Part shown: positions 1,062-18,220 of the stretch, in pieces
Numbering within the stretch: position 1 is the stretch's first letter
How the letters are laid out: every line of letters begins with the position of its first letter
NCBI RefSeq assembly: GCF_003934165.1
Contig: NZ_RKST01000016.1
Coordinates: 1-64,000, forward strand
Length of the DNA: 64,000 bases
Source: Borborobacter arsenicus
GTDB taxonomy: Bacteria; Pseudomonadota; Alphaproteobacteria; Rhizobiales; Rhizobiaceae
Direction: 5' to 3'
The notes under the pieces: model-generated
Database searches by the model: none
The model's input: the letters and a program-made list of their open reading frames with translations, nothing else
Told to the model about the DNA's origin: nothing
Translations under genes and position numbers: made by a program

Positions 1062-3218
1062 ATGGCAAAGAGCGCCATTCAGAAGATCGCAATGAACCCC
1101 TCGGAGAATATTGCCTACGACAAGCTTGTGCTGTCGCAGGAGAATGTCCGCCGCGTAAAGGACGGCGTCACCGTCGAGCAGCTCGCCGAGGACATTGGGC
1201 GGCGTAAGCTCTTGCAGAGCCTGAACGTCCGTCCCGTGCTCGACGGAAACGGAGAGGAGACCGGCATCTTTGAGGTGCCCGCCGGCGGGCGCCGCTATCT
1301 CGCGCTCGGCATTCTCGTCAAGCAGAAACGCTTGGCGAAGAACGAGCCGATCCCCTGCATCGTCAATCGCAGCGGAACGACATCGGCCGAAGAGGACTCG
1401 CTTGCCGAGAACGTGCATCGCGAGAATCTTCATCCGCTCGACCAGTTCCGGGCGTTCAAGACACTGAAGGAGCAGGGCCTCGACGTCGAGGAGATCGCCG
1501 CGCGCTTCTTCGTGTCGGCCGCGACCGTCAAACAGCGGCTGAGGCTCGCCTCGGTTTCGCCAAAACTGCTCGAACGCTACGAGAAGGATGAAATCCGCCT
1601 TGAGCAAATCATGGCGTTCTCGATTTCCGACGACCATGCCCGGCAGGAGCAGGTCTGGGAGCGCATCTCCAACAACTCGAACATGCAGGAGCCCTACTAC
1701 ATCAGGCGCCTGCTGACGGAAACTACGGTGCGTGCCGACGATCGCCGAGCGATCTATGTCGGCGCCGAGCCCTACGAGGCCGCGAGCGGCGTCATCCTGC
1801 GCGACCTGTTCGAGCAGGATTCCGGTGGCTGGTTCCAGGATGCAGCTCTCCTCGAGAAACTGGTCTTCGAGAAGCTGAAAGTCGATGCCGAGACCGTTCG
1901 TAGCGACGGCTGGAAGTGGGTCGAGGCCGCGATCAGCTTTCCCTATGGCCACACCTCCGGCATGCGGCGTGTCTACGCCGAGCCGGCGGAGATGAGTACC
2001 GAGGAGATCGCCCGCTACGATGCGGTGAAGGCCGAGTATGATGCGCTCGACGCGAAGTATGCGGAGATGGAGGACGCCGACCAGGACATCGAGGACAAGC
2101 TCGATCAGCTCGGCGCCGAACTCGACGCATTTAGCGATCGCCCGCAAGACTATGACCCAGCGCAAAAGGGTCTCGCCGGCGCGTTTGTCACGCTCAGCGC
2201 CAACGGCCAGCTGCAGATCGAAGCCGGCTTTGTCCGCCCCGAGGACGAACCGCGGATCGAGACGGGTGATGACGATGGAGAGGGCGGGGGCGGGGATCGC
2301 GACCCGTCGCAGTCCGACGAGGACAGCGCCGATGGCGTCGTCGTCAACGGCCGGTCCACGAACGGTGGATCCGACACGGCCGAGGAGCCCGAGGATGAAG
2401 GCATCAAGCCTCTACCCGAACGGCTCGTCTTCGATCTCACAGCGCATAAGACGCTTGCGCTGCGCAACGCGCTCGCGAGTGACGTCGACATCGCCTTCGT
2501 CACGGTTCTCCATGCTCTCGTGCTGCAGGTGTTCTATCGGTTCGCCAAGGACAGCTGCCTCGAGATCAACATGGTGAGCAATAGCTTTGGCCAGGTCCAG
2601 GGTCTCGCCGAGACCCCTTGGGCGAAGGAAGTCGCCGAGCGTCACGAGGCCTGGGAACGGGATATGCCGGACAGCGACAAGCTGTGGGAATACCTGCTCG
2701 GTCTTGACGAAGCGAGCCGTAAGGCACTCTTCGCCCACTGCGCGTCACTCTCACTCAACGCCGTAGTCGAGCCCTGGAACAAGCGGCCCGGCGCGCTAGC
2801 CCATGCCGACGCACTCGCTGCCACGCTCAGCTTCGACATGGTCGAGGCTGGCTGGTCGCCAACGGTGGACAACTATCTCGGCCGCGTCACCAAGGCCCGG
2901 ATCGTTCAGGCTGTGCGCGAAGCGCGCGGTGAGGATTCCGCGCAGCTGATCGACCACATGAAGAAAGACTTGATGGCACGTGAGGCCGCTCGTCTTCTCG
3001 AAGGGTCGAACTGGCTGCCGGAGCCGCTGCGCCTCTATGGCGACGACGCAGTTGGTGAAGTCACCGAAGCCGTTACCGACGATGTGACAAACGAGAGGGC
3101 TCTCGACGGCGATGCCGCCGAACTGCCGGCCTTCCTCGCCGACGATACCGGCACGTCCCCCGATGAACCGGTGACCGTCGCCGGTGAGGAACCCGATCAT
3201 CTCCAGGCCGCCGAGTAA
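1062..3218 (+). CDS. ParB/RepB/Spo0J-family protein (large plasmid type)
   Basis: The 718-residue protein has a ParB-like N-terminal domain with the GGRRYLALGIL and AENVHRENLHPLDQFRAF motifs (about residues 65-135), followed by a helix-turn-helix stretch (VEEIAARFFVSAATVKQRLRL). An acidic, glycine-rich linker and a long C-terminal region of unknown function follow. It is about twice the length of a chromosomal ParB. I chose ATG 1062 because GGAG at 1049-1052 is correctly spaced; an in-frame ATG at 1047 overlaps that ribosome site. No parA lies next to it, and partition is already supplied by repAB, so a role as a DNA-binding or nuclease-like ParB relative in plasmid establishment is an inference. 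A strong terminator follows. Confidence 0.85.
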   Translation: MAKSAIQKIAMNPSENIAYDKLVLSQENVRRVKDGVTVEQLAEDIGRRKLLQSLNVRPVLDGNGEETGIFEVPAGGRRYLALGILVKQKRLAKNEPIPCIVNRSGTTSAEEDSLAENVHRENLHPLDQFRAFKTLKEQGLDVEEIAARFFVSAATVKQRLRLASVSPKLLERYEKDEIRLEQIMAFSISDDHARQEQVWERISNNSNMQEPYYIRRLLTETTVRADDRRAIYVGAEPYEAASGVILRDLFEQDSGGWFQDAALLEKLVFEKLKVDAETVRSDGWKWVEAAISFPYGHTSGMRRVYAEPAEMSTEEIARYDAVKAEYDALDAKYAEMEDADQDIEDKLDQLGAELDAFSDRPQDYDPAQKGLAGAFVTLSANGQLQIEAGFVRPEDEPRIETGDDDGEGGGGDRDPSQSDEDSADGVVVNGRSTNGGSDTAEEPEDEGIKPLPERLVFDLTAHKTLALRNALASDVDIAFVTVLHALVLQVFYRFAKDSCLEINMVSNSFGQVQGLAETPWAKEVAERHEAWERDMPDSDKLWEYLLGLDEASRKALFAHCASLSLNAVVEPWNKRPGALAHADALAATLSFDMVEAGWSPTVDNYLGRVTKARIVQAVREARGEDSAQLIDHMKKDLMAREAARLLEGSNWLPEPLRLYGDDAVGEVTEAVTDDVTNERALDGDAAELPAFLADDTGTSPDEPVTVAGEEPDHLQAAE

Positions 3219-3239
3219 TCGGCCTTCCGCTCACCATCC

Positions 3240-3267
3240 GGCCCGGCATCTCCGCCGGGCCTTTTTT
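3240..3267 (+). terminator. rho-independent terminator after the ParB-like gene
   Basis: Perfect 8-bp stem GGCCCGGC/GCCGGGCC with loop ATCTCC, followed directly by TTTTTT. It lies only 25 bases before the next start codon, so the following gene needs its own promoter or antitermination. Confidence 0.85.
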
Positions 3268-3292
3268 CATTTTCCGACATGGAGACATACGC

Positions 3293-5539: not shown

Positions 5540-8500
5540 ATGAACATCGTCACGACCACATCGACCGTCGCCCGGACTGTCGTTCCCCTTGCCGCGCCAG
5601 CATCCGCCGGCATTAACACCGCCCCGGCGATTCACCAGGCGGCAGCGTCGCTCCTGCCCTTTCTCGAACAGGGCAAGCCCATCAGCACCGCAGCACTACG
5701 CACGGCCATGACCGACAGCTTCGGCGGCACCGACGCACAAGGCTTCTGGGTCTGGAAGGACGCCTATGAAGCGCTCGAAGCCGCCTTGGTCCTGTTTCTG
5801 CGCCGCTTCGGGCCGGCGATCCTGTCCCGGTCGGCCTCGCCCGCGGCGACACTGGCGATGATGAGGCGCATCGCCGAACTTGTTCCCACTCACACGCGCC
5901 GCTCCGACGAGAGCCAGGCCATGCAGCAACTGTCGACGCCGCTGCCACTCGCTTTCCTCACCGCTCACGCAGCCGCGATTTGCTCTTCGGATCGTGTTCT
6001 CGAACCCTCGGCCGGCACCGGCCTTCTGGCCGTCCATGCCGAGATCGCCCGCGCCTCGCTCGTGCTCAATGAGCTCGCCGCTACGCGCGCCGATCTGATC
6101 GGCCTGCTGTTTCCGCGCGCCCCCGTCTCCCGGCACGACGCAGGTCATATCGATGATCACCTCGATCCCACCATCGCGCCTTCGGTCGTGCTGATGAACC
6201 CGCCCTTCAGCGTCGGCGCATATGTCGACGGCCATGTCGCCGACGCCGCATGGCGGCATCTGTCTTCTGCCTTTGCTCGTCTACACGCCGGCGGCCGCCT
6301 TGTTGCCATCACCGGCACCAGCCTTTCTCCTGAAAACCCCAAATGGCGGCCGGCATTCGAGCGGCTTCAGCAGCAGGGCAGGGTCGTCTTCACCGCCGCA
6401 ATCGACGGCCGTGTCTATGCCCGCCATGGGACGACGGCCGAAACCCGTCTGACGATCATCGACAAGATCCCTGCGAGTGACCCGACCGGATTCGTTACGT
6501 CGCCGGGTAAGGCTTTGGACGTCGAGACGCTGCTCGCCTGGATCTCCGGCCTGCCGCCCCGGACACCGGGCGGCTTTCCAGATTCGATCGGTGCCCTGTC
6601 GAATGGCGTCCTGCGCAATGCCGCCAAGAAGATGGCGGCGCGATCAGCCGATCGCGCCGCACCCGCCGCACCTACGGCGTCCGTTGCTAAGATCGGCCGG
6701 TTGGCCCGTCCGGTTGCCCGGGCGAAGCCCACCCGTCCGGCCATGCCAGCCGACACGCCTGCCGTTCCCCTTGCCTATGAGCTGCGCGACTGGATGCCCG
6801 AGGAGGGCGGCCCGCTCACCGATACGATCTACGAGCCCTATGCGCTGCAATCGATCCACATGCCGCGCGCCAAGCCCCATCCGACGCCGCTGGTCCAGTC
6901 GGCCGCTATGGCTGCTGTCGCGCCGCCGAAGCCGTCCTACCGGCCACTTCTGCCTGACGCCATTGTCGATGAAGGCCTGCTATCAGACGCCCAGCTCGAA
7001 AGCGTTATCTATGCCGGCGAGGCACATTCCGGCCATCTCGCCGGGAACTGGACGGTCGACGAGACCTTCGACGTCGTTTCGGCTGCGCCAGAAGATGCTG
7101 AAAACGCCGTACGCTTCCGTCGTGGATGGTTCTTGGGCGACGGCACCGGGTGCGGCAAAGGACGCCAGGTCGCTGGCATCATCCTCGACAACTGGCTGCA
7201 GGGCCGCCGGCGCGCGATCTGGATCTCCAAGTCGGACAAGCTGCTCGAAGATGCACAACGCGACTGGGCAGCACTTGGCCAGGAGCGTCTCCTCGTCCAG
7301 CCGCTCTCGCGCTATCGGCAGGGCACACCGATCCGCCTTGCCGAAGGCATCCTGTTCACGACCTATGCGACGCTACGCTCGCAGGAACGCGACGGCAAGA
7401 AGTCCCGCATCGCCCAGATTATCGACTGGGTGAAACAAGAGGCGGGAAGGACCGCAAGTCCGACAGGGATTGAAGAAAACCAGACGGGCAGAGCGGAGGG
7501 CTCGCCGGGGACAAAAAAGTCATTTGATGGCGTCATCGTCTTCGATGAGGCCCATGCCATGGCCAACGCAGCCGGCGGCAAAGGCGAGCGCGGCGACGTA
7601 ACGCCCTCGCAACAGGGCAAGGCCGGACTGCGGCTGCAGCATGCGCTTCCCGACGCCCGTATCGTCTATGTTTCTGCGACCGGCGCGACCGCGGTGGAGA
7701 ATCTGGCATATGCCCAGCGCCTCGGCATCTGGGGAAGCGAGGATTTTCCATTCGCCAACCGCGCCGAGTTCGTCGCGGCGATCGAGGATGGCGGCGTCGC
7801 CGCGATGGAAGTGCTCGCCCGCGACCTCAAGTCGCTCGGGCTCTACACCTCGCGCTCGCTCTCCTATGACGGTGTCGAGTACGATCTGCTCGAGCACGAG
7901 CTGACCGAGGAGCAGATCCGCATCTACAATTCTTATGCGGACGCCTTCCAGGTCATCCACAACAATTTGACCGCCGCGCTCGAGGCGACCAACATCACCA
8001 GCGAAACCGGCACGCTGAACCGCAATGCCAAATCGGCTGCGCGCTCGGCCTTCGAGAGCACCAAGCAGCGCTTTTTCTCGCATCTGATCACCTCGATGAT
8101 GACGCCGACGCTGATCGGCGCGATCGAGCGGGACGGTGCCGACGGTCATTCGGCGGTGGTGCAGATCGTCTCCACCGGCGAGGCGCTGATGGAGCGGAGG
8201 CTGGCCGAGATTCCGACCGAGGAATGGTCCGACCTGCATGTCGACGTCACGCCGCGCGAGTATGTCGGCGGGTATCTGATGCATTCCTTCCCGACCCAGC
8301 TCTTCGAGGAATATTCGGACGCGGAAGGGAACGTCTATTCGCGGCCCGTCCACGACGTTGACGGCAATCCCGTCCAATGCCGTGAAGCGGTGCGCCGGCG
8401 CGACGAATTGATCGAGAAGCTCGGCTCCCTGCCGCCGGTCGGCAGCGCGCTCGACCAGATCATCCACCACTTCGGCACGGATGTCGTCGCCGAGGTAACG

Positions 8501-10078
8501 GGCCGCTCCCGGCGCATCGTAAGAAAAACCGGCCGCGACGGCATCGACCGGCTTGCAGTCGAAAACCGACCTGGCTCAGCCAATCTCGCCGAAACCCAGG
8601 CCTTCATGGGTGACGACAAGAATATCCTAGTCTTCAGCGACGCCGGTGGGACCGGCCGCTCCTACCACGCTGATCTCGGAGCAAGGAATCAGCGGCTGCG
8701 GAAGCACTATCTGCTGGAGGCTGGATGGCGTGCCGACAACGCCATCCAGGGGCTCGGACGAACCCACCGCACCAATCAGGCGCAGCCACCGCTGTTCCGG
8801 CCGATGGCCGCGAACGTCAAGGCGGGAAAGCGCTTTCTTTCGACGATCGCGCGCCGGCTCGACACGCTGGGCGCGATCACACGCGGCCAGCGCCAGACTG
8901 GCGGGGCTGGGCTGTTCCGGTCCGAGGACAATCTGGAAAGCCCCTATGCTCGTGCGGCGCTCCGCCAATTCTACTGGCTGCTGCATCAGGGCAAGATCGA
9001 GGGCTGCTCGCTTGCGACGTTCGAGGCTGTAACCGGCCTGTCGCTGACCACCGACGAGGGCGGTCTTCGCGACGAGTTGCCGCCGATCACGACCTGGCTG
9101 AACCGGCTGCTGGCGCTACGCATTGAAACCCAGAACCTTTTGTTCGAGGTGTTCGAGCAACTGATGACGGCGAAGATCGACGGCGCCATCGCTGCCGGCA
9201 ACTACGACAAGGGCCTTGAGACGATCACTGCGGAGAGCATCGTCGTCACCGATCGGCGCACCGTCTACACCCATCCAGTCTCCGCCGCGCAGTCGCATGT
9301 GCTGACCGTCGCGCGAAAGGACCGCATCCGGCCTCTTGGCCTGGTCGACGCGCTGGCCATCGCCCGCGCCGAGCCGCAATCGGCACTGTTGGTCAACACG
9401 CGTTCGAACCGTGCGGCGGTCCAGCTGCCGACCGCGAGCCTGATGCTTGACGACGGCGCGATAGAGCATCGCGTGCGTCTGTTGCGGCCGACCGACGAAC
9501 TGCGTTTCGGTCTCGATGCCCTCGCCGAGACCCATTGGGAGCCGGCCGACCGGAAGCTGTTCTGCGAGCTCTGGCAAGCGGAGGTGGCCGCGGTTCCGGA
9601 GTTCAGCACCAGCAGCTTCCACATCGTCACCGGATTGCTTCTGCCGATCTGGCGGCGCCTGCCAGATCATGACTGCCAAGTCTACCGCATCCAGACCGAC
9701 GCAGGCGAACGCATCATCGGCCGCCACATCGCGCCGACGCTGGTTGCGACCATGTTGCGTAACCTCGGGATCGACAATGTGCCGACGCTCGCAGCGGACG
9801 AGGCATGGACCGGGCTGCTCGAAGGACGGATCGGCTTGCAGCTTGCCGACGGCCTGGTCCTGCGTCGCAGCCGGGTCATGAACGACTATCGCGTCGAGCT
9901 GATCGGCTTCACCGATGCGATGGTGCCGCGGCTGAAGGCGCTGGGTCTGATTTCGGAAATCATCTCCTGGAAGCTGCGCCTGTTCATCCCGACCGGCGCC
10001 GGCGGCTCCGCCATGCTCGCCTCGCTCCTCGACCGCCATACGCTGGTCGGGGTCACCGACCGGTCGTCAGCGGCCTGA
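5540..10078 (+). CDS. methyltransferase/Strawberry-notch-type SF2 helicase fusion
   Basis: The 1,512-residue protein joins a class I SAM-dependent DNA methyltransferase (LEPSAGTGLLAVHAE; catalytic NPPF at residues 220-223) to an SF2 helicase of the Strawberry-notch type (Walker A GDGTGCGKG at 533-541, DEAH at 669-672, then VYVSATGAT, and arginine-finger motif GLGRTHRTNQ at 1071-1080). A long C-terminal region of unknown function follows. The start at 5540 is set by AAGGA eight bases upstream; an in-frame start at 5498 lies within the leader hairpins. Proteins of this design, comparable in layout to phage P1 DarB, belong to the polyvalent proteins of phages and conjugative elements and are thought to protect incoming DNA. 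That role is inferred here. The Toprim gene follows by 15 bases. Confidence 0.88.
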   Translation: MNIVTTTSTVARTVVPLAAPASAGINTAPAIHQAAASLLPFLEQGKPISTAALRTAMTDSFGGTDAQGFWVWKDAYEALEAALVLFLRRFGPAILSRSASPAATLAMMRRIAELVPTHTRRSDESQAMQQLSTPLPLAFLTAHAAAICSSDRVLEPSAGTGLLAVHAEIARASLVLNELAATRADLIGLLFPRAPVSRHDAGHIDDHLDPTIAPSVVLMNPPFSVGAYVDGHVADAAWRHLSSAFARLHAGGRLVAITGTSLSPENPKWRPAFERLQQQGRVVFTAAIDGRVYARHGTTAETRLTIIDKIPASDPTGFVTSPGKALDVETLLAWISGLPPRTPGGFPDSIGALSNGVLRNAAKKMAARSADRAAPAAPTASVAKIGRLARPVARAKPTRPAMPADTPAVPLAYELRDWMPEEGGPLTDTIYEPYALQSIHMPRAKPHPTPLVQSAAMAAVAPPKPSYRPLLPDAIVDEGLLSDAQLESVIYAGEAHSGHLAGNWTVDETFDVVSAAPEDAENAVRFRRGWFLGDGTGCGKGRQVAGIILDNWLQGRRRAIWISKSDKLLEDAQRDWAALGQERLLVQPLSRYRQGTPIRLAEGILFTTYATLRSQERDGKKSRIAQIIDWVKQEAGRTASPTGIEENQTGRAEGSPGTKKSFDGVIVFDEAHAMANAAGGKGERGDVTPSQQGKAGLRLQHALPDARIVYVSATGATAVENLAYAQRLGIWGSEDFPFANRAEFVAAIEDGGVAAMEVLARDLKSLGLYTSRSLSYDGVEYDLLEHELTEEQIRIYNSYADAFQVIHNNLTAALEATNITSETGTLNRNAKSAARSAFESTKQRFFSHLITSMMTPTLIGAIERDGADGHSAVVQIVSTGEALMERRLAEIPTEEWSDLHVDVTPREYVGGYLMHSFPTQLFEEYSDAEGNVYSRPVHDVDGNPVQCREAVRRRDELIEKLGSLPPVGSALDQIIHHFGTDVVAEVTGRSRRIVRKTGRDGIDRLAVENRPGSANLAETQAFMGDDKNILVFSDAGGTGRSYHADLGARNQRLRKHYLLEAGWRADNAIQGLGRTHRTNQAQPPLFRPMAANVKAGKRFLSTIARRLDTLGAITRGQRQTGGAGLFRSEDNLESPYARAALRQFYWLLHQGKIEGCSLATFEAVTGLSLTTDEGGLRDELPPITTWLNRLLALRIETQNLLFEVFEQLMTAKIDGAIAAGNYDKGLETITAESIVVTDRRTVYTHPVSAAQSHVLTVARKDRIRPLGLVDALAIARAEPQSALLVNTRSNRAAVQLPTASLMLDDGAIEHRVRLLRPTDELRFGLDALAETHWEPADRKLFCELWQAEVAAVPEFSTSSFHIVTGLLLPIWRRLPDHDCQVYRIQTDAGERIIGRHIAPTLVATMLRNLGIDNVPTLAADEAWTGLLEGRIGLQLADGLVLRRSRVMNDYRVELIGFTDAMVPRLKALGLISEIISWKLRLFIPTGAGGSAMLASLLDRHTLVGVTDRSSAA

Positions 10079-10093: not shown

Positions 10094-11131
10094 ATGTCCG
10101 GCTCGGCCTCCGAGCTGGCGCGCCGCTTGGGCGAACATGCCGAGACGGTGTGCCGCGAATATCTCTCCAACGGCTATCGCTCCGGCAACCACTGGATCGT
10201 TGGCGACGTCCGCAACACGCGCGGCCGTTCCATGCATGTGCGGCTGAGGGCCAATGCCAAGGGTCCTGCGGGGAAGTGGGTCGATGAGCAAAGCGGGGAA
10301 CATGGCGATCTGCTCGATGTCATCGAAGCGAGCTGCGGCCTCACCGAGTTCCGCGATGTCGCGGACGAGGCACGTCGCTTTCTTGCCCTGCCGCGACCCG
10401 AAACCGTACGCACAGAGCGCGAGGCCGCCGCGACACGCGGCTCGCCCGACGCCGCCCGTCGCCTCTTCGCCATGTCGCAGCCAATCGCCGGCACCCTTGC
10501 CGATCGCTATCTTGCCGGCCGCGGCATCCTGCTTGGCCCGCAGGAGCGATGCCTGCGCTTCCATCCCGGCTGCTACTATCGGGATCTCCTGACGGGCGAG
10601 ACGCTCGCGCTTCCCGCCCTGATCGCCGCAGTCACCGGCCTCGACGGGCAGATCACCGGCCTGCAGCGCACCTGGCTTGATCCTTCGGGCACGGGCAAGG
10701 CGCCGCTCGCCGATCCGCGCCGCTCGCTCGGTCACCTGCTTGGCAACGGCATCTGGCTCGGACTTGATCCCAGCGCCCCGGTCCCCGTCATGGCCGCGGG
10801 CGAGGGTTTCGAGACAATGGCGTCGCTCCGCACGGTCATGCCGGCGCTGCCGGTCGCCGCCGCCACCTCGGCCAACCACCTCGCCGGCCTGTCCTTCCCG
10901 CCTGGCTGCCGTCGCCTCTACATCGCGGCCGATGCCGACGCTGCCGGCCGCCACGGCATCGAGCGTCTCAGCCAGCGCGCAGGCGAGGCCGGGATCCTCG
11001 CGCTGGCGTTACGGCCGCAGCTAGGCGACTTCAACGACGATCTGCGCCATCTCGGCCCGGCTTCTGTCGCCGCGTGCCTACGGGACCAGCTCATCCCGGA
11101 CGACGCGCGTCTCTTCCTGCCGCTCGGCTGA
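10094..11131 (+). CDS. Toprim-domain primase-like protein
   Basis: 345 residues. The N-terminal part (SNGYRSGNHWIVGDV, GKWVDEQSGEHGDLLDVI) is the zinc-finger-less DNA-binding region found in plasmid and phage primase-like proteins. The C-terminal half has the Toprim signature: conserved Glu in AAGEGFETMASL and the DxD motif in LYIAADADAAGR. It would bind divalent metal and could act as a primase or nuclease on transferred single-stranded DNA, though no helicase domain is fused. It starts 15 bases after the helicase gene with GGGGAGG as ribosome site, so the two are probably co-transcribed. Confidence 0.8.
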   Translation: MSGSASELARRLGEHAETVCREYLSNGYRSGNHWIVGDVRNTRGRSMHVRLRANAKGPAGKWVDEQSGEHGDLLDVIEASCGLTEFRDVADEARRFLALPRPETVRTEREAAATRGSPDAARRLFAMSQPIAGTLADRYLAGRGILLGPQERCLRFHPGCYYRDLLTGETLALPALIAAVTGLDGQITGLQRTWLDPSGTGKAPLADPRRSLGHLLGNGIWLGLDPSAPVPVMAAGEGFETMASLRTVMPALPVAAATSANHLAGLSFPPGCRRLYIAADADAAGRHGIERLSQRAGEAGILALALRPQLGDFNDDLRHLGPASVAACLRDQLIPDDARLFLPLG

Positions 11132-11156
11132 CCGGCCAAATCGGCAAGTTGGCCGG
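11132..11156 (+). terminator. hairpin after the Toprim gene
   Basis: Stem CCGGCCAA/TTGGCCGG (8 bp, perfect) with a 9-base loop begins directly after the Toprim stop codon. There is no T-tract. Confidence 0.5.
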
Positions 11157-11314
11157 CAGGCGGGCAGGGCGGCGTCATCGGAAACACTCGCAGCCATAGC
11201 GGTAGTCCGGCGGAGAGGCCGCGCCCGCGGCCTGCCTGAGAGGCGATCCCTGCCACCCCCCGGTCACGGCCGCAACGGCTGCGCCGTCCTCCGCTGACAC
11301 TCCGGCCTTCGGTG

Positions 11315-11337
11315 CGGCCGCGCCCGGGGCGCGGCCG
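11315..11337 (+). terminator. GC-rich hairpin before the DUF2493 gene
   Basis: Stem CGGCCGCGCC/GGCGCGGCCG (10 bp, perfect) with loop CGG, followed by GGTTTCGC. The gap 11132-11389 holds no gene that I can support. Confidence 0.5.
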
Positions 11338-11389
11338 GGTTTCGCTGTCAGGCCGCGATGGGCGCGGCCACAACCGACGGAGACCCGCC

Positions 11390-12331
11390 ATGACCTACGA
11401 GCTTCCCTTCGACGACGCCTACGAGCCCTACCACGCCTCCTCGCCGACCGATCGTGTCATCCTCGAGCTGCAGATGTACGGCCACCGCCCGCATCAGGAC
11501 GAGCCCGATCCCCGCCCGCTGCCCGACGACGAGGTGATCCGGGCCGGCCTCGCCGGGATCGTCGAGACCTTCGCCGGCATGCTCGGCGACACCAGGCTCG
11601 AACCCGATCTCGACGATCTGCTCTGGTCCTTCACCAACGTCTTCCACCGTGCCGCCGAACGCGTCGCCCGCAGCCTCGACCGCAACGAGGAGGCGCAGCG
11701 GTCGAGCCAGAACGAGCAGGACGGCTCCGAGGTGAAGTCTGTCGAGCTGGAACGCCTCACCGCCGAAGGCATCACCTATATCGAGCGCCGCAACGTGCTG
11801 GAAATCATGCGCGACGAAGCGGCCGACCTCTACGAGGCTGAGACCGGCTCGGCATGGCGGCCGCGCACCGGTTCCAAGGTCTCCCATCAGGCGATGACGG
11901 CGGCGGTGATCGACTCCCGGGACTTCCTCGCCGCCCGCCGTCGCGCCGACACCGAGGTGCTGGTCCCGGCCGGCACCAAGATCGCCTTTGCCGGCGGTCT
12001 CGACTGCAACGAGCACGACCGGATCTGGGACGCGCTCGACAAGGCCCGCGAGAAGCACGCGGACATGGTCCTGCTGCACGGCGGCAGCCCGCGCGGCGCC
12101 GAGCGGATTGCCGCTTGCTGGGCCGAAAGCCGCAAGGTCACGCAGATCGCCTTCAAGCCGGACTGGAACCGGCACGCGAAAGCGGCTCCGTTCCGCCGCA
12201 ACGACCAGCTTCTGTCGGTGATGCCCTACGGACTGATCGTCTTCCCCGGCTCCGGTATCACCGACAATCTGGCCGACAAGGCCCGCCGCCTCGGAATCCC
12301 CGTCTGGCGGTTCACGGAGGGTGGCGCGTGA
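11390..12331 (+). CDS. DUF2493 (SLOG-fold) protein
   Basis: 313 residues. The C-terminal 120 residues form a SLOG/YspA-type Rossmann domain: VPAGTKIAFAGGLD, then DMVLLHGGSPRGAERIAACWA, then SVMPYGLIVFPGSGITDNLADKAR. The glycine-rich GGSPRGAE and PGSGITDN loops are the expected nucleotide-binding sites. The N-terminal 180 residues are a helical, acidic region typical of the plasmid versions. SLOG domains bind or process nucleotide-derived ligands and often occur in conflict systems; the role here is unknown. The start at 11390 has GGAG upstream. Confidence 0.8.
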   Translation: MTYELPFDDAYEPYHASSPTDRVILELQMYGHRPHQDEPDPRPLPDDEVIRAGLAGIVETFAGMLGDTRLEPDLDDLLWSFTNVFHRAAERVARSLDRNEEAQRSSQNEQDGSEVKSVELERLTAEGITYIERRNVLEIMRDEAADLYEAETGSAWRPRTGSKVSHQAMTAAVIDSRDFLAARRRADTEVLVPAGTKIAFAGGLDCNEHDRIWDALDKAREKHADMVLLHGGSPRGAERIAACWAESRKVTQIAFKPDWNRHAKAAPFRRNDQLLSVMPYGLIVFPGSGITDNLADKARRLGIPVWRFTEGGA

Positions 12332-12637
12332 GCGCCGCCTTGATTTCCCGCGTCGAAGAACCCGACCGTCCGCGGTCGGTTTCTTCGTGTGCATACTTCC
12401 GTCCGGCCTGCCGAATTCGGGGCGGTGGCCGGGCCGGCAAGTCCGTCAGGTACGCGAGCGGTTCGATTGTTCTCCGATCCGGGCGCGCCGGCCTGCGGCC
12501 GGCCGGGCTCTACTCGCGGCGTACCGCCGCTCCCCGAGCCGGCTACGCCGTCTCGGCCTTCGGTGACGATCCCTCACGCGCGAGAGGGAGAGGAGAGCCG
12601 GACCGGGGCGGTTGATTTGAGAGAAAGGAAAGCGACC
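12332..12637. other. gene-free gap with an intergenic repeat
   Basis: No convincing gene. The gap carries the first copy of the repeat described at 12492-12580. The forward frame is open throughout but has no coding character before the ATG at 12638. Confidence 0.5.
12492..12580 (+). repeat. intergenic repeat A, copy 1
   Basis: About 89 bases, closely similar to 15092-15182. Shared blocks include GGCCGGGCTCTACTCGCG, then CCGCTC, GAGCC, and near the end CGCCTTCGGT-type and ACGATCCCT sequences. It precedes a SLOG gene by about 60 bases; copy 2 lies upstream of another plasmid gene. Confidence 0.65.
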
Positions 12638-13171
12638 ATGGCGATGATATTCCTTGGCGGCTCGCGCGACATCTACGAACTGCCGGTCCCCACAATCGAA
12701 CGGATCAGCGCGATCGTCGCGGCCGAGCACGGCGTGCTGATTGGCGACGCTCCGGGGGCCGATGCCGAGATGCAGGGCCTGCTCGCCGGCTACAATTACG
12801 AGCATGTCGGCGTCTTTCATGCCGGGCCGCAACCGCAGAACAATCTCGGTGACTGGGCCGCCTATCATGTCCCACCACCGCACGGCGCAAAAGGCTTTGC
12901 CGTTCACGCCGGGAAGGACCGCGAGCTGGCCCGGCGCGCCGATTTCGGGCTGATGGTCTGGGACGGCGCATCGCCCGGCACCTGCCTCAACGTGTTGCGC
13001 CTGGCCGTGATCGGCAGCCCATGCGTCGTCTACGACGCGCTGCGCGGCACGGTAGCGACCGTCCACAACACCGCGGACTGGCGCGCCATGCTCGACCATG
13101 CCGGCCCGGACGTTCGCAGCGCCGTCGAAGCCCGCATGACGGCGGACGAGCGCCTCGTACTAGAGAGCTGA
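12638..13171 (+). CDS. SLOG-like Rossmann-fold protein
   Basis: 177 residues from ATG 12638, preceded by AAAGGAAAG. The N-terminus, IFLGGSRDIYELP, followed by HGVLIGDAPGADAEMQGLLAGYNYEHVGVFHAG, has the layout of a SLOG nucleotide-binding domain. A further loop, GLMVWDGASPGTCLNVLRL, lies at the position where SLOG proteins carry their second ligand loop. It is a second, divergent SLOG-type protein directly after the DUF2493 gene, suggesting that the pair works on one ligand. The product is cytoplasmic and the function unknown. Confidence 0.65.
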   Translation: MAMIFLGGSRDIYELPVPTIERISAIVAAEHGVLIGDAPGADAEMQGLLAGYNYEHVGVFHAGPQPQNNLGDWAAYHVPPPHGAKGFAVHAGKDRELARRADFGLMVWDGASPGTCLNVLRLAVIGSPCVVYDALRGTVATVHNTADWRAMLDHAGPDVRSAVEARMTADERLVLES

Positions 13172-13179
13172 TCGCGACC

Positions 13180-13197: not shown

Positions 13198-13699
13198 CCC
13201 TTGATCCGGCCAAAGACCGACGCCGGCGCCTGTGCTGGCCGAGGCGATCGTCTGCGGGCCTCCTTTCGAAGCCGGTCCCTTGCGGACCCGTCTTTCGCGG
13301 CCCGCCGGCAACCTCAGGGACACCCGCCTGTCCTGTCGCGCCAAGGGCAGGGCAGTTGCGGATCAGGGCGCGCAAACTCGGCTGTCGTGCTTGATCGCGG
13401 ACCACATCGCCGGTGTTGGAGCAGAGCACCACCACCCTGCCGCGACCGCGAAACCCGGCGCGTGACGGAAGCCGGGGCAGGGGATCACCTCGCGGGGGTA
13501 AGAGTGGCACGGTGACGAAGGGGCAGATCCGCAGGGCGGCAAACGCATACCCGCAGCCCCCGCGTCCGGCGTGAAGGACCTGCGATGGTGGCCGGAGGCA
13601 TCGCCTTCGCTCACATCCGTACCATTCCCGTGGTTATGTCGCCTTTGTAGTGGACCGCCTGCTTTTGCGGTCAACCCCCGTTGGGGGTACGCTCGACAA

Positions 13700-13788
13700 A
13701 AATTCAGGAAAATTCGATTTCAGTTTTTGTTTGCGGGCAGGCGAAGAGCCTGCCCGCGGCTTTTCGCAACTAGAATTTTCCAGAATTT
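13700..13788. repeat. 16-bp inverted repeat enclosing a hairpin
   Basis: AAATTCAGGAAAATTC (13700-13715) and GAATTTTCCAGAATTT (13773-13788) are inverted copies with one mismatch. They are AT-rich in a GC-rich neighbourhood and flank the 13733-13757 stem. This could be a protein-binding or recombination site, or an RNA fold. Confidence 0.6.
13733..13757 (+). terminator. terminator-like hairpin in noncoding DNA
   Basis: Perfect 10-bp stem GCGGGCAGGC/GCCTGCCCGC with loop GAAGA, followed by GGCTTTT. No gene ends nearby, so it may end an unannotated small RNA that starts further upstream. Confidence 0.6.
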
Positions 13789-13868
13789 ATGCCGAGTGAC
13801 CGCAGCAGGACGGCCCTCTCCAGCGGCGCCATCGGGAATGGTCCCGATGCAACCGAAGGAGAAGTACC

Positions 13869-14192
13869 ATGGCCACCACGATCGCAAACCTCACCGCCAA
13901 GGCCGACGGCTCGATGGAAGGCGTGTTCGCCACGCTGCGGGTCAACGCCCCGATCACCCTGATCCCGAACACCAACAAGTCCCGCGAGGACGCTCCCGAC
14001 TACCGCATCGTCAACAAGCGCACGGGTTTCGAGATCGGAGCCGGCTGGCATCGCGTCTCCCAGCGGTCGGGCGAGGAATACCTCTCGGTCAAGCTGGAAG
14101 CCCCCGAGATCGGCGTGATCTTCGGCAACCTCGCACCCGCCCCCGGCGGCGACGAGAACAAGAAGGTGATCCTCTGGAACAACCCGCAGTGA
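13869..14192 (+). CDS. DUF736 family protein
   Basis: 107 residues with the typical DUF736 course: an IANLTAKADGSMEGVFATL start, then PDYRIVNKRTGFEIGAGWHRVS, and YLSVKLEAPEIGVIFGNL. The family is small, beta-rich and almost restricted to plasmids and integrative elements of Alphaproteobacteria; its role is unknown. AAGGAG lies 7 bases upstream of the start, and an 8-bp hairpin (13830-13849) lies just before that, which may modulate translation. Confidence 0.85.
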   Translation: MATTIANLTAKADGSMEGVFATLRVNAPITLIPNTNKSREDAPDYRIVNKRTGFEIGAGWHRVSQRSGEEYLSVKLEAPEIGVIFGNLAPAPGGDENKKVILWNNPQ

Positions 14193-14259: not shown

Positions 14260-14586
14260 ATGAGCCGCTACACCATCACCGTCACCAGCGACGGCCGCTC
14301 CGACGAGGACGCCGTCATCGGCTACGATCCGCCGCTGCGCACCTTCTTCCTGCAGGCGTTCCCGGACGAGAGCGGAGATGATCTCGCGCTTTGGCTCGGC
14401 ACCAGCGACCGCGAATATGAAACGGTCGACGCCCTGCACGCGGCGGGGCGAGCCAAGGGCTTCGACTTCATGCCACTACCCGATAGCGTCGCGTTGTCGC
14501 TCGCCGACGACCTTGCAAAGGAGGCCGATCGGCCTCGACACGACGGTCCGCCCGCCGCGTTGATGCGGCATCTGCAGTCCGACTAG
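14260..14586 (+). CDS. conserved plasmid hypothetical protein
   Basis: 108 residues starting at ATG 14260 with AGGAGG six bases upstream. The sequence is acidic (SRYTITVTSDGRSDEDAVIGYDPP, RTFFLQAFPDESGDDLALWLG) and resembles a small family seen next to DUF736 genes. It has no membrane segment or known motif, and I propose no function. A strong two-way terminator follows and separates it from the convergent WGR gene. Confidence 0.65.
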   Translation: MSRYTITVTSDGRSDEDAVIGYDPPLRTFFLQAFPDESGDDLALWLGTSDREYETVDALHAAGRAKGFDFMPLPDSVALSLADDLAKEADRPRHDGPPAALMRHLQSD

Positions 14587-14607: not shown

Positions 14608-14640
14608 CCCGCGCCGGATTTCTATCCGGCGCGGGCCTTT
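14608..14640. terminator. bidirectional rho-independent terminator
   Basis: Perfect 12-bp stem CCCGCGCCGGAT/ATCCGGCGCGGG with loop TTCT. It is followed by CCTTTTT on the plus strand and by TCTTTTCTTTT on the minus strand, serving both convergent genes. Confidence 0.85.
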
Positions 14641-14669: not shown

Positions 14670-14921
14670 TCATTCGACCCCGGGCGCATCGTGATACCCG
14701 CGTCGTCTCTTCGCTTGTTCGAGCGCAAGACGGGCAGCGGCGGCCGCGGCCTCCTGCGCGAAGAGATCGATGCGGGTTCGGCCGCGCCTGCCGATCCGAC
14801 CCCATTCGCGCACGAGGCAGATGTCACCGAATAGGCCCGGTGACGCCGACAGGCGATAAAACCGCGCCATATTGCGGGCAGGGTCGATGCGGTGGAGATG
14901 GACAATTTCGTGCTTTGGCAT
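14670..14921 (-). CDS. small WGR-domain protein
   Basis: 83 residues made up almost entirely of a WGR domain: HRIDPARNMARFYRLSA, then CLVREWGRIGRRGRTRIDLF, then AAARLALEQAKRRRGY. WGR domains bind nucleic acid and are usually fused to other domains, as in PARP and bacterial MolR-like proteins. Stand-alone forms are frequent on rhizobial plasmids. I chose ATG 14921 because the domain starts there; an upstream in-frame start at 14957 adds 12 residues without homology. It is convergent with its left neighbour. Confidence 0.75.
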   Translation of the reverse strand: MPKHEIVHLHRIDPARNMARFYRLSASPGLFGDICLVREWGRIGRRGRTRIDLFAQEAAAAAARLALEQAKRRRGYHDAPGVE

Positions 14922-15091
14922 GTGACGATTGTCGCCAGGCCATCGTTCTCGGTCCAACGCCTTTTGTGAATCGGTCGCCCGTTATCGATTCACACGGCTG
15001 ATGAATCGTCAAACGGTCTTCACTGACATCATCGTGGACCATCCAGTGCGTCGCAGTCCTGGGTCGGTCACGCAAAGGGATGGGCGAACCA

Positions 15092-15182
15092 CCTGCGGCG
15101 GCCGGGCTCTACTCGCGTCGCGTCGCGCCGCTCACGGAGCCCGCTTGCGCGGTCTCCGCCTTCGGTAACGATCCCTTTCGCG
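15092..15182 (+). repeat. intergenic repeat A, copy 2
   Basis: Partner of 12492-12580. Alignment by eye needs two small gaps. Differences are scattered substitutions, as expected for an old but conserved element rather than a recent duplication. Confidence 0.65.
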
Positions 15183-15196: not shown

Positions 15197-15240
15197 GGAT
15201 CGACCGGTCCCTTGCGCAACGAGGGGCAACCCCTCGCGCT
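15197..15240 (+). repeat. intergenic repeat B, copy 1
   Basis: About 44 bases similar to 16179-16224. Both begin GGATCGACCGG and end CCCCTCGCGCT. This copy contains the hairpin CGAGGGG/CCCCTCG with loop CAA. Confidence 0.6.
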
Positions 15241-15502
15241 CCCCGCCGGCTGGTCGCCGGAGATGGTCGCGTCCCCTGGCGGGGACGCGGGTCTATCTCT
15301 CTGACGTCCCAGTCTACTGGCCGCTCACATCGCCTCAAGGACTGCGCGGCCCCTCCAATTTTCAGCCGTCGCCCTGAAGAAGCGCGTCGTCAGAAAATCG
15401 GTTCCTCCGCTTGCCGCCTCCGGCGGTCGCTTCGCGATCCTTGACCCGATGCTCGACTTGCCCGTCGGCGGCCTCCGTCATCAAGATGAAGGAGACCATG
15501 AC

Positions 15503-16063
15503 ATGGCACACAACACTCTCATGCTTATCGCGCAGCTGTCCGGCCTGCGCATCCTCGTCCTCGCCAACCGCTTTGGTTGCGACACCGATCTGGCCCGAAG
15601 CGTCCACGATACGCTCGCTGTGAAGCTCGCCGAAATGATCGATGCGCAGCGCAAGATCCTCGCCGCCGACCGGGCGCTTATCGCAGCGCGTGGCACCGAG
15701 GACGAAGAGGACGCCTTCTACGACCAGCACCACTACCAGACGGCCTGGTACGAGACATGGCTGATCGAGCCGGTCGCGCTTCTCGACGATTATCTGGTCG
15801 ACGATCTCAGCCGTGAATATTTCGACTTCCGCACCGGAGAGTGGCATCACCGAGACGGCGAGGTGCCGATCGCGGTGCCGGTCCCGGCCGAAAAGCTCTG
15901 TGGTCTCGCCACGATCATCGCTGAGATCGAGGATATCACCGGTGCGCGGTTCAGCGTCGACAATGTCTACTACAGCGAAGTCGAGGCCGAGGCCGCGTGG
16001 TGGGAAAACACCGGCGCGGATCCGGACGAGTTCTTCGCAATGAAAGAAGCTGGCCGCGACTGA
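15503..16063 (+). CDS. conserved plasmid hypothetical protein
   Basis: 186 residues from ATG 15503; GAAGGAGA is 8 bases upstream. The protein is acidic and helical: an N-terminal helix (LMLIAQLSGLRILVLANRFGC), a middle region rich in Asp/Glu and aromatic residues (EDAFYDQHHYQTAWYETWLIEP), and a C-terminal AEAAWWENTGADPDEFF. I do not recognise the family. The N-terminal hydrophobic helix is too polar to be a clear signal peptide. It is the last forward gene before the transfer region. Confidence 0.65.
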   Translation: MAHNTLMLIAQLSGLRILVLANRFGCDTDLARSVHDTLAVKLAEMIDAQRKILAADRALIAARGTEDEEDAFYDQHHYQTAWYETWLIEPVALLDDYLVDDLSREYFDFRTGEWHHRDGEVPIAVPVPAEKLCGLATIIAEIEDITGARFSVDNVYYSEVEAEAAWWENTGADPDEFFAMKEAGRD

Positions 16064-16178
16064 CGGCATGAGATCGAGGCGGTGCCAGCCGCCTCGATCT
16101 TTTCATGTCTCGCAATCGTCACGCAGGCACGCGACATCCCATGGCACATGAATTTCGCTCTTGTTGCCCCAAAGGGCC

Positions 16179-16237: not shown

Positions 16238-16729
16238 TCACCTCTTCGCCGATTTCGACGGCGCGTCATTCGAATCGTCCGGTGACAATTCCTCGACAAG
16301 CATGAGCAGGTTCTGCGCCGTAGCCGCCGGCAGGTCGAGGATGCGCTTCACGAGCTTGTTCTTGACCGCCGCCTCCTCCTGGCTGTCGCCAAAAAACTGC
16401 GGGGCCGCCGCATAGATCGCCTCGATCGGCGAGAAGTCGAGAAGTTCGGCGAGATGTAACAGCCGCGTCACCCTGAGCTTGGCGCCCGCGCGCTCATGCC
16501 GCGCATAGATCTCCTGATGGATCCCGATCATCATGCCGACCTGCTCGCGGTTGAGGTTCTGCGCGTCGCGATGCTCCCGAAGATAGCGGCTCAGCTCCTC
16601 CTCCATCTCCAGAAGGCTGCGAACACCGTTGAAGCCAGGCTTGCGCCAGATCGGCTTGTCGACCTCGGAGTCGGTCGTTTCGACAAGCCCGTGCCTGTCG
16701 ATGTAAGTCTGAACGTCCTTGATGGCCAT
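16238..16729 (-). CDS. XRE-family helix-turn-helix regulator
   Basis: 163 residues. The helix-turn-helix occupies about residues 50-105 (LREHRDAQNLNREQVGMMIG, HQEIYARHERAGAKLRVTRLLHLAELLDF). A C-terminal helical region follows (KNKLVKRILDLPAATAQNLLMLVEEL). I chose the start at MAIKDVQ (16729); an in-frame start at 16771 adds 14 residues of low quality. It probably represses its own gene or the adjacent transfer genes; the sequence does not show which. It is the first minus-strand gene to the left of the VirC1/C2-like pair. Confidence 0.75.
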   Translation of the reverse strand: MAIKDVQTYIDRHGLVETTDSEVDKPIWRKPGFNGVRSLLEMEEELSRYLREHRDAQNLNREQVGMMIGIHQEIYARHERAGAKLRVTRLLHLAELLDFSPIEAIYAAAPQFFGDSQEEAAVKNKLVKRILDLPAATAQNLLMLVEELSPDDSNDAPSKSAKR

Positions 16730-16892
16730 CTGCCTGGCTCGACCCGAATTCAGTTGCCCCAGCCCCGTCAAAAGAGACGGGAAACACCCCGAAATGGCTC
16801 AAGATTGCCCAAAAACAGAGCCAAAACGATAGTGTTCCTAGCAGGGAATCGGACTCGATTTCAACTCGCCCTTCGATCTAGCCGCTTTCGCC

Positions 16893-17249
16893 TCAATAGC
16901 CGTTCGTGTCGAGATACTGCCGGATAGCCTTTTCCATGATCGCCTGCATGGAGGTGTCCATGTTGAAGGACGCCAGCTTCAGCCGCCGCTTGGTGTCGCG
17001 ATCCAGGTTGACGTTGACGAAATGGCTCGCTCCTTGCATCCGCGCGCGCTTCATCTGGCGCAGCGCCTTGCTCGCCCCCGTCTGCACCGTCCCCTCTTTC
17101 AAACTTTCGTTGCTCGTCGAACCCGGTGTCGCGGCAGGCTCGCGGGGCTGTTCCGTGTCCGCAATTGAGGGACGTTCGGATGTCGCCATACGCTGCCTGC
17201 GCGGCGCGGTGGCGAATTCATCGAGCGACAGGGTTTCCTTGCCGCTCAT
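16893..17249 (-). CDS. ribbon-helix-helix protein (VirC2/ParG-like position)
   Basis: 118 residues. The N-terminal 70 residues are polar and probably disordered. The C-terminal 50 form a ribbon-helix-helix domain (SHFVNVNLDRDTKRRLKLAS, FNMDTSMQAIMEKAIRQYL). Its start overlaps the stop of the ParA-like gene by 4 bases (ATGA), so the two are co-translated. Pairing of a ParA-type ATPase with an RHH protein occurs in ParA/ParG partition and in VirC1/VirC2, which enhance relaxase action at oriT. The location beside mobC and the relaxase favours the second reading. Confidence 0.7.
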   Translation of the reverse strand: MSGKETLSLDEFATAPRRQRMATSERPSIADTEQPREPAATPGSTSNESLKEGTVQTGASKALRQMKRARMQGASHFVNVNLDRDTKRRLKLASFNMDTSMQAIMEKAIRQYLDTNGY

Positions 17250-17947
17250 GCCGCACGCCCCGCCGCCACCTCGCCCGTGAGCAGTGCGTCGACTTCCTGC
17301 ACCAGCGCCTGCGTCTCCCGCCGCGCCTTGGCGATCGCCTCCGTCACTTCCTGCATTTGAAGCGTACCTATGCCGTTGTGGATGTCCTTGTAGACATTGC
17401 GCTCGAACACCTCGGTGCGGAACAGATAGGTCCCCACCTTGTCCTCGATGATCGGCCTGATCTTCCGGTAGAGTTCCGTGTGCCGGACGGTCACGGTGAT
17501 GCGGGTGCGCAGCACACCGTGCCGGCATTCCCGCCCGAGTGCGTCGTTGACGCGCACCACGGTCTCAAAACTGTCGATGGCGCCCAGCACCTCGCGCTTC
17601 GAAGGCTGGATCGGCGAGATGACGAGATCGGCCGCGGCGATGACCGGATCGACGATCGAGGTATCTTCACCCGGCGTATCGATCAGCACGTAATCGAACG
17701 TACGGGCGTTATCGCCCATCCAGCGTTCGAGCCCCCGTGCCGTCTTGTGGCTGTAGACCTCGATACCTTCAGGCTGAGAATCCTTCTCCTGAGAATCCGT
17801 CCACCACTTCATCAGATTGTTGCGGGCATCCATGTCGATCATGGCGACGCTGTCGCCACGGAGCGCATATTCGCCGGCGATGTTCATCAGCGCGGTGGTC
17901 TTGCCCGCGCCTCCTTTGCCATTGATGGCGGCGATCACGACGGTCAT
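17246..17947 (-). CDS. ParA/VirC1-family ATPase
   Basis: 233 residues with the deviant Walker A motif KGGAGKT at residues 11-17, a SVAMIDMDARNNLMKWW segment, and a DYVLIDTPGEDTS Walker B region. The short length, lack of an N-terminal DNA-binding domain and WW segment resemble VirC1 more than plasmid RepA. VirC1 binds oriT-proximal DNA and brings relaxosomes to the transfer channel. It is transcribed away from mobC across a 270-base, repeat-rich gap. A true partition role is less likely because repAB is present. Confidence 0.75.
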   Translation of the reverse strand: MTVVIAAINGKGGAGKTTALMNIAGEYALRGDSVAMIDMDARNNLMKWWTDSQEKDSQPEGIEVYSHKTARGLERWMGDNARTFDYVLIDTPGEDTSIVDPVIAAADLVISPIQPSKREVLGAIDSFETVVRVNDALGRECRHGVLRTRITVTVRHTELYRKIRPIIEDKVGTYLFRTEVFERNVYKDIHNGIGTLQMQEVTEAIAKARRETQALVQEVDALLTGEVAAGRAA

Positions 17948-18220
17948 CGGCTCATCTCCACAAAAATGTGTTTCTACTCACACACGAATCCGTTTCCGTG
18001 TGGACGTGGATTCACATCGATATAGAAACACACGAACATGGAAAAATGCAATCATATAGATATGAAAAAATGCGTCATACGGCGTAATATGGTAAAAATC
18101 CATGCCCTTTAGGTTGGCAGGATACGGAAAACTGTGATACATTTTTCCTGACGATCGAGGGACAGGCCCTCGATCCGCGGCCTGCGGCCGCAACCACCAC
18201 GATTAAAGGTGTGGCTGGCG
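17948..18220. other. oriT: candidate oriT and divergent promoter region
   Basis: The gap between the VirC1-like gene and mobC is AT-rich and full of repeats. TGTGTTTCTA (17967-17976) is inverted at 18023-18032 and encloses CACACG/CGTGTG and GAATCC/GGATTC. Direct repeats ATGGAAAAATGCAATCATA and ATGAAAAAATGCGTCATA start at 18038 and 18062. A 9-bp stem GATCGAGGG/CCCTCGATC (18153-18175) is followed by GCGGCC/GGCCGC. Such features are expected of an oriT with relaxosome binding sites, and also of operators. The nick site is not identified. Confidence 0.55.

What the first reader, a model, noticed from the sequence alone, without database searches (positions are those of the whole stretch)
1062..18220. 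Leading-region hypothesis: a hairpin-punctuated array of plasmid genes all reading towards the candidate oriT
Eleven forward genes (ParB-like to the 186-residue protein) lie on the non-relaxase side of the repeat-rich gap at 17948-18220. If, as in F-like and VirD2-type transfer, the relaxase genes enter last, the 1-16 kb block enters first. The transferred strand would then be the minus strand, which is exactly the template for these plus-strand genes. The gaps carry strong hairpins and repeated elements within about 20-110 bases of the starts; such structures could act as single-strand promoters like Frpo, allowing expression before second-strand synthesis. The genes themselves (methyltransferase-helicase, Toprim, SLOG, ParB-like, WGR) look like protection or establishment functions. 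The direction of transfer is not proven by the sequence.
Basis: partly seen in the sequence, partly recalled or inferred. Interest (0 to 1): 0.72.

Follow-up and report, generated by a model that had tools for sequence, protein, structure and literature searches.

The report
Single-strand leaders of plasmid entry genes
A soil-bacterium plasmid carries, just before two of the genes that enter a new cell first, DNA sequences that look built to fold on the single strand that is transferred, possibly to switch those genes on at once; related copies occur on many other plasmids and I found no description of them.

Summary
The leading-region hypothesis holds in silico. A MOBP-type nick motif (minus strand TATCCTG^CC, + 18116-18124) with an inverted repeat 5' of it is present in 15 of 15 gaps compared, the window's included, making the minus strand the transferred strand and 1-18 kb the leading region. 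Element A (15270-15514, before a 186-aa acidic protein) is one copy of a ~190-nt noncoding family: 158 copies in 104 loci searched, matches in 526 plasmid records, 58 over most of the query, no Rfam match. Copies abut start codons of several unrelated small acidic proteins; in 36 of 36 loci with both, the relaxase lies downstream on the same strand, across MOBP, MOBQ and MOBF. The transferred strand folds better in 83 of 83 copies, beyond composition, with G.T wobbles 137 to 8. Element C (13646-13862, before DUF736) is a long inverted repeat with weaker strand evidence. Best reading: Frpo-like single-strand promoters/leaders of unrelated sequence. Transcription is untested; no canonical -35/-10 was recognised.

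The parts
18116..18124 (-). nick motif TATCCTG^CC; predicted nic between + positions 18118 and 18117; the 5' end of the T-strand runs towards lower coordinates
   Evidence: 15 of 15 gaps compared (window plus 14) carry it on this strand, none on the other; matches the published MOBP consensus (passages)
18126..18148 (-). inverted repeat immediately 5' of nic (GGAAAA/TTTTCC arms)
   Evidence: near-invariant in close relatives; in divergent L007, L008 and L015 the arms differ and form imperfect stems
15270..15514 (+). element A with Shine-Dalgarno and start codon of the next gene; the modelled core is minus strand 15331-15450
15503..16063 (+). 186-aa acidic protein (pI 4.4, net charge -22) led by element A; no family or fold match
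13646..13862 (+). element C: long inverted repeat up to the Shine-Dalgarno of DUF736
13869..14192 (+). DUF736 protein led by element C
15086..15181 (+). element B copy 2, just upstream of A
12487..12579 (+). element B copy 1, upstream of the 12638-13171 gene
11132..11389 (+). gap before the SLOG gene; weaker candidate for a T-strand structure
   Evidence: 13 hits, plus-minus 4.95 vs 0.00 in shuffles
1062..3218 (+). ParB-like leading protein
5540..10078 (+). strawberry-notch helicase with methyltransferase-like N-terminus
10094..11131 (+). Toprim, DNA-primase-like
11390..12331 (+). SLOG (YspA-like) protein; relatives are annotated DUF2493
12638..13171 (+). 177-aa protein without Pfam match
14260..14586 (+). 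108-aa acidic protein without Pfam match
14670..14957 (-). WGR protein, reading away from oriT
16238..16771 (-). HTH protein, reading away from oriT
16893..17249 (-). RHH-like protein (weak match, below cut-off)
17246..17947 (-). VirC1-like ParA ATPase beside oriT
18209..18616 (+). NikA/MobC-like relaxosome protein
18616..21102 (+). relaxase (PF03432), predicted to enter last
   Evidence: four close relatives typed MOBP
3240..3261 (+). terminator-like hairpin after the ParB-like gene
12362..12379 (+). terminator-like hairpin after the SLOG gene
14608..14635 (+). terminator-like hairpin between convergent 108-aa and WGR genes
16071..16100 (+). terminator-like hairpin after the 186-aa gene

Best explanation
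The window's 1-18 kb is the leading region of a MOBP conjugative plasmid whose transferred strand is the minus strand. Shown in silico: the nick motif and its polarity; two conserved noncoding elements (A before the 186-aa gene, C before DUF736) directly upstream of leading genes; for A, placement on the leading side of oriT wherever a relaxase was in view, and a fold of the transferred strand better than composition predicts, with covariation. Inferred: when the strand enters the recipient, A and C fold and recruit a factor, most likely host RNA polymerase, so that leading genes are transcribed before the second strand is made, as with Frpo of the F plasmid. The small acidic proteins behind A would be early protection or establishment factors.
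For: Nick motif on the minus strand in 15 of 15 gaps compared, window included, with a 5' inverted repeat (rule from passages). MOBQ relatives: nic-like TGCG^CYCT with an inverted repeat 5' of it, seen by eye on the same strand in 5 of 5 traC-traA gaps (its meaning is recalled; Roseibium and Labrenzia are near copies). A: 36 of 36 loci with both have the relaxase downstream on the same strand (L085 by its better copy), TraG downstream on the opposite strand in 30 of 30. In 13 whole plasmid records the model gives 25 hits; 18 of 18 in the 11 records with a relaxase in the stretch read lie on its leading side, 7 are on CP132318, where no relaxase was seen, and one record has none. 44 of 45 loci with several copies have one strand only. 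Structure: 97.5% of cells paired, 14 pairs changed on both sides, 0 of 500 shuffles as high on any of five measures, slid versions 33-50%; G.T on the T-strand 137 vs 8 on the other; T-strand more stable in 83 of 83, difference 8.06 vs 3.60 in shuffles, 0 of 30 sets. Start codon at one alignment offset in 80 of 129 scored copies, within -21..-9 in 126. C: 15 of 17 copies more stable on the T-strand, 3.57 vs 0.15, 0 of 20 sets. Positive control: both Frpo gaps of F lean the same way (7.5 vs 2.1, 4 of 50 shuffles reach it; 8.6 vs 1.4, 1 of 50).
Against: No canonical -35/-10 recognised in the folded arms of A or C (by eye). Nearly half of A's raw strand difference is composition (3.60 of 8.06), and random segments of the same loci also lean slightly to that strand (150 vs 96 of 249). 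The 29-pair structure was chosen from the minus-strand fold; a Watson-Crick-only consensus found 7 pairs for A and no wobble bias for A (3 vs 2) or C (7 vs 9). The strand test is not fully specific: tandem repeats of F next to sopB also pass it. The whole gap that holds C leans to the plus strand. One A copy (L085) faces the other way; Mesorhizobium pB2-1-8 has none. Most plasmid matches are partial. No expression data.
Confidence: 0.6

Rival explanations
1. A and C are single-strand initiation (priming) sites: the folded T-strand is recognised by a primase (perhaps the leading region's own Toprim primase-like protein) or primosome to start second-strand synthesis. Gene control is incidental.
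For: Structure and placement on the T-strand as above; a primase-like Toprim protein is encoded in the same block (phrog_510). [quoted passage not shown]
Against: The element abuts start codons at a near-fixed offset, and one plasmid has seven copies before seven genes, which priming does not need.
Confidence: 0.17
2. A is a structured 5' leader of the mRNA (+ strand), controlling translation.
For: It ends at the Shine-Dalgarno; hairpins near the ribosome site are visible.
Against: The + strand is the less stable strand in 83 of 83 copies; most A.C mismatches on + are G.T pairs on minus; RNAalifold finds almost no consensus structure on + (-0.44 against -12.47 on minus, RNA parameters).
Confidence: 0.1
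3. A encodes a noncoding RNA transcribed from the minus strand, antisense to the leader.
For: An RNA of minus-strand sequence would show the same G.U wobbles.
Against: It would not explain the one-sided, one-orientation placement next to three relaxase classes; no Rfam match. Minus-strand promoters were not examined.
Confidence: 0.07
4. The elements are duplex operator sites or spreading repeats with no single-strand role.
For: Element B, usually just upstream of A, is conserved without a significant strand preference (37 vs 20 of 57, p=0.054); inverted repeats can be operators; the wobble count for C is neutral.
Against: For A, pairs changed on both sides, strand preference beyond composition, and no model hit away from the transfer region in 13 whole records, with filters that lose weak matches.
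Confidence: 0.06

Closest known systems
Frpo1/Frpo2 (ssi) single-strand promoters of plasmid F and relatives (PMC9849209 and PMC11541004: passages read; Masai and Arai 1997: title only, in reference lists)
   Same: Conserved noncoding elements directly upstream of leading genes, those genes templated on the T-strand; repeated copies; T-strand folds better than its complement (tested on F here).
   Different: The A model has no hit in F 48-68 kb (C not compared); A folds as a branched structure with short helices rather than one long promoter hairpin; no canonical -35/-10 recognised; other hosts and relaxases.
MOBP origins of transfer such as RP4 oriT (PMC3772185, passages read)
   Same: (C/T)ATCCTG(C/T) nick motif with inverted repeat 5' of it; NikA/MobC-like and VirC1-like genes beside it.
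   Different: Nicking not tested; the VirC1-like gene sits on the leading side and reads away from oriT.
Anti-defence islands of leading regions (PMC11541004, passages read)
   Same: Leading genes in T-strand-templated orientation; small proteins of unknown function. That study reports leaving MOBP2, MOBT and MOBC out of its downstream analysis; the subtype of the window's MOBP relaxase was not determined.
   Different: No known anti-defence family above cut-off among the 10 proteins behind A scanned with Pfam; one weak Lar-like hit at E=0.013, below cut-off.

Membership tests
Frpo-type single-strand promoter | lies in the leading region, upstream of genes templated on the T-strand | tested here: met
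Frpo-type single-strand promoter | the T-strand folds into a stable structure, more so than its complement | tested here: met
   A; C: but wobble count neutral and the whole gap leans the other way; control
Frpo-type single-strand promoter | the fold rebuilds canonical -35 and -10 boxes | tested here: not met
   none recognised by eye in the aligned arms of A or C; alphaproteobacterial promoters can be poor matches (recalled), so this lowers membership, not likeness
Frpo-type single-strand promoter | sequence homology to known Frpo/ssi | tested here: not met
   model R1 (A) finds nothing in F 48-68 kb at E<=1; C was not compared
Frpo-type single-strand promoter | transcribed by host RNA polymerase while single-stranded; early transient expression in recipients | not testable with these tools
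   needs experiment
MOBP oriT | (C/T)ATCCTG(C/T) with 5' inverted repeat near the relaxase gene | tested here: met
MOBP oriT | site- and strand-specific nicking by the cognate relaxase | not testable with these tools
   needs purified protein
known structured RNA family (Rfam 15) | match to a covariance model | tested here: not met
   no match in 15080-15502 or 13640-13868 at E<=1

The most novel reading that the evidence does not exclude
Alphaproteobacterial plasmids, including Ti and symbiotic plasmids, share a class of T-strand-only control elements that is not a hairpin copy of a duplex promoter: a branched single-stranded DNA fold, read by a dedicated factor or an unusual polymerase mode, acts as an interchangeable early-expression cassette in front of several unrelated small acidic leading proteins, whatever the relaxase (MOBP, MOBQ, MOBF).
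Probability: 0.35. Interest if true: 0.88.

Novelty: new variant of a known kind. Interest (0 to 1): 0.76.

Why it matters
Single-strand promoters have been worked out on F and related plasmids. If A and C work alike, early gene expression from incoming single strands would extend to Ti, symbiotic and catabolic plasmids of alphaproteobacteria. Element A also gives a search handle: where a relaxase was in view it marked the leading side and T-strand polarity without knowledge of nic, and it points to a set of unstudied acidic early proteins.

Tried and rejected
Reading every gap hairpin as a single-strand promoter: rejected; several are terminator-like and most gaps show no minus-strand excess over shuffles. 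Element B as a T-strand element: not supported on its own (37 vs 20 of 57 copies, p=0.054; consensus folds near zero on both strands). Watson-Crick-only consensus as an unbiased strand test: too few pairs for A (7), neutral for C (GT-plus 7, GT-minus 9; 11 sequences). An earlier count for C (126 vs 4) came from a structure optimised on the minus strand and is not used as evidence. ORF presence behind A: dropped, random positions have such ORFs in 1284 of 2080; only the offset is used. Acidity of the followers was not compared with a proteome-wide baseline. Function of the 186-aa protein: no Pfam or PHROG match at E<=0.05 and no fold match at E<=0.001. Exact MOBQ motif TAAGTGCGCCCT: no match, so I looked at the traC-traA gaps by eye. 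Order-wide model search: 9 of 249 genomes, own included; only 14 candidates a genome were scored, so a lower bound. Rows dropped: of 158 A copies 134 were full length and 83 remained below 90% identity; alignment A1 used 74 of the 83, leaving out L055:29680, both L071, both L111 and L132:6549 (long inserts) and the three L118 copies. Of 137 copies with a 3' end, 129 were scored for the next gene, 1 had none and 7 ran off the locus. In one search two of the 17 copies, from L037, rest on partial hits; the two that favour the plus strand are L023 and one L037. At least two contigs seem held twice under different locus names (L029/L086, L032/L112, by equal contig length), so raw copy counts are slightly inflated. 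The pattern scan found 103 stretches, of which 80 were held. Papers opened but not used: PMC4294206 (abstract and outline), PMC5789077 (passages).
Full report
What the window is. The left 22 kb has largely the same order in Aminobacter pMDW2 and pUSP2, Chelativorans, Aquibium and Mesorhizobium plasmids: ParB-like, DUF1419, strawberry-notch helicase, Toprim, DUF2493, DUF736, WGR (reverse), a small protein, HTH, RHH-like and VirC1-like ParA (reverse), oriT gap, MobC, relaxase, then a VirB/VirD4 secretion system (not every gene in every record). Four of these five are typed conjugative MOBP; the Mesorhizobium one is typed non-mobilizable.

Direction of transfer. In the gap before mobC the minus strand reads GGAAAAATGTATCACAGTTTTCC-G-TATCCTG^CC. 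All 15 gaps compared, the window's included, carry the motif on that strand and none on the other. An inverted repeat stands 5' of it; in three divergent relatives (VirC1 identity 39-46%) its arms differ and form imperfect stems. In the whole window [CT]ATCCTG[CT] occurs ten times, once in this gap. [quoted passage not shown] So the 5' end of the transferred strand runs left: 1-18 kb enters first, the relaxase last. The VirC1-like, RHH-like and HTH genes next to oriT are coded in the other sense and would need the second strand.

Element A. The leader of the 186-aa gene, 15301-15502, is 95-96% identical in two relatives (L024, L025) whose whole match to the window is 84-86%, 94% in L026 and 88% in L023. 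Blast finds it in 526 plasmid records, 58 of them over at least 80% of the query (203 nt, E<=1e-3); a longer query that includes element B finds 570. No phage record matches. A pattern for part of it hits 103 stretches in species genomes; the 80 held are from Rhizobiales, Sphingomonadales and Rhodobacterales, judged from genus names. A profile finds 158 copies in the 104 loci searched. Prevalence is partial: a TraA relative occurs in 1,279 plasmid records at E<=1e-50; element and relaxase were not matched record by record.

Placement. In 36 of 36 loci that hold both, the relaxase lies downstream on the element's strand; TraG is downstream on the opposite strand in 30 of 30. These cover TraA (MOBQ: p42d, pTiC58, Ancylobacter, Roseibium, Labrenzia), the window's MOBP type, a MOBP mob type (Methylorubrum) and MOBF (Sphingopyxis). 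In five traC-traA gaps a nic-like TGCG^CYCT with an inverted repeat 5' of it lies on the strand that makes the element's side leading (by eye; that it resembles the RSF1010 site is recalled). A covariance model finds 25 hits in 13 whole plasmid records, all inside the stretches read around the transfer region: 18 in 11 records on the leading side of a relaxase, 7 in Shinella CP132318, before seven genes but with no relaxase in the stretch read, and none in the Mesorhizobium record. Exception: one of two copies in L085 faces the other way.

What follows A. The next start codon lies at one alignment offset in 80 of 129 scored copies and within a 13-nt span in 126. The called products fall into 12 blast clusters; one of them (11 members, the window's among them) is a wrong-frame call of the window's family, and one singleton may be another, so about ten families at blast level. 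Eleven products from ten clusters have pI 4.1-5.1; 111 of the 129 called products are below 5.5. One matches DUF3846, one DUF2958. The 186-aa model (mean pLDDT 84.6) matches nothing at E<=0.001 in PDB or viral models. That they are protection factors is inference.

Which strand folds. In 74 aligned copies of the minus strand, five helices (29 pairs) hold: 97.5% of cells pair, 14 pairs changed on both sides, 59 such cells; 0 of 500 shuffles reach any of the five measures; partners slid by 1-3 columns pair 33-50%. Wobble cells are G.T on the minus strand in 137 and on the plus strand in 8; 71 of the 137 sit at one conserved pair, and without the three richest pairs the count is 18 to 7. With DNA parameters the minus strand is the more stable in 83 of 83 non-redundant copies (mean -34.3 vs -26.2); random segments of the same loci lean the same way slightly (150 vs 96 of 249). 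Composition explains part: dinucleotide shuffles give 3.60 of the 8.06 kcal/mol, and 0 of 30 shuffle sets reach the observed mean. Against: the helix set was read from the minus-strand fold, and a Watson-Crick-only consensus is too sparse to test.

Element C. Before DUF736 lies an inverted repeat spanning about 200 nt (the p42d copy folds from the Shine-Dalgarno outward). There are 43 hits in 42 loci; in loci with A, 38 of 39 are on A's strand, the exception being a partial hit. Blast finds it in 305 plasmid records, 82 over at least 80% of the query; many others match only the end next to the gene. The T-strand is more stable in 15 of 17 copies, 3.57 vs 0.15 in shuffles, 0 of 20 sets. But the wobble count is neutral, the repeat is strong on both strands (z about -7 and -8), and the whole gap leans to the plus strand. 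The strand claim for C is weaker than for A.

Control. In plasmid F the two gaps taken for Frpo2 (before ssb) and Frpo1 (a 90% similar copy near 16 kb of the stretch) show a T-strand excess of 7.5 vs 2.1 and 8.6 vs 1.4 in shuffles (4 and 1 of 50 reach it); the gap before DUF932 and the oriT-traM gap do not. The tandem repeats at 4.0-4.5 kb, next to sopB (recalled as sopC), mostly do too, so the test is not proof alone. Taking these gaps for Frpo2 and Frpo1 rests on position before ssb and mutual similarity, compared with the paper's description.

Mechanism and standing. The paper on F reports that Frpo folds rebuild -10 and -35 boxes and that deleting Frpo1 or Frpo2 removes early expression of the genes tested (passages). 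The anti-defence study reports Frpo homologues in 6,006 of 21,907 conjugative elements and leading genes in T-strand orientation (passages), and leaves MOBP2, MOBT and MOBC out of its downstream analysis. My searches for a description of such elements in rhizobial or alphaproteobacterial plasmids (listings, plus the passages named) showed none; the library is open-access PMC only. I file A and C as Frpo-like in placement and strand logic, not as Frpo members: homology (for A) and canonical boxes were looked for and not found. Promotion, priming or both cannot be separated here.

Noticed in passing
12487-12579 and 15086-15181: Element B, a ~95-nt repeat with 76 copies in the loci searched, in the window just upstream of A; 72 of 72 copies in loci with A are on A's strand, but it has no significant strand preference in folding.
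   Followed up: partly
11132-11389: Gap before the SLOG gene: conserved and more stable on the T-strand than shuffles predict (4.95 vs 0.00, 13 hits); another candidate single-strand element, though a Watson-Crick-only consensus shows no wobble bias.
   Followed up: partly
G000:C16:49128-51572 (L012, L030): The same genome has a second plasmid-like contig with a 70% identical relaxase, the conserved oriT gap and element C, but no element A in the 20 kb read.
   Followed up: partly
16893-17947: VirC1-like ATPase and RHH-like gene beside oriT, coded so that they need the second strand; VirC1 homologues stand beside the relaxase in 14 other loci.
   Followed up: no
24103-36012: VirD4, VirB11, VirB10 and VirB4-like genes on the minus strand: the plasmid's own mating-pair apparatus.
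   Followed up: no
L085:5937-6145: The only A copy found in the opposite orientation to a neighbour copy on the same locus.
   Followed up: no
L057 (CP132318 109000-158166): Seven element A copies, each directly before a gene, on a Shinella plasmid typed non-mobilizable with no relaxase annotated in the stretch read.
   Followed up: partly
15503-16063: Acidic 186-aa protein family with a fairly confident predicted model (mean pLDDT 84.6) and no solved or viral fold match at E<=0.001.
   Followed up: partly
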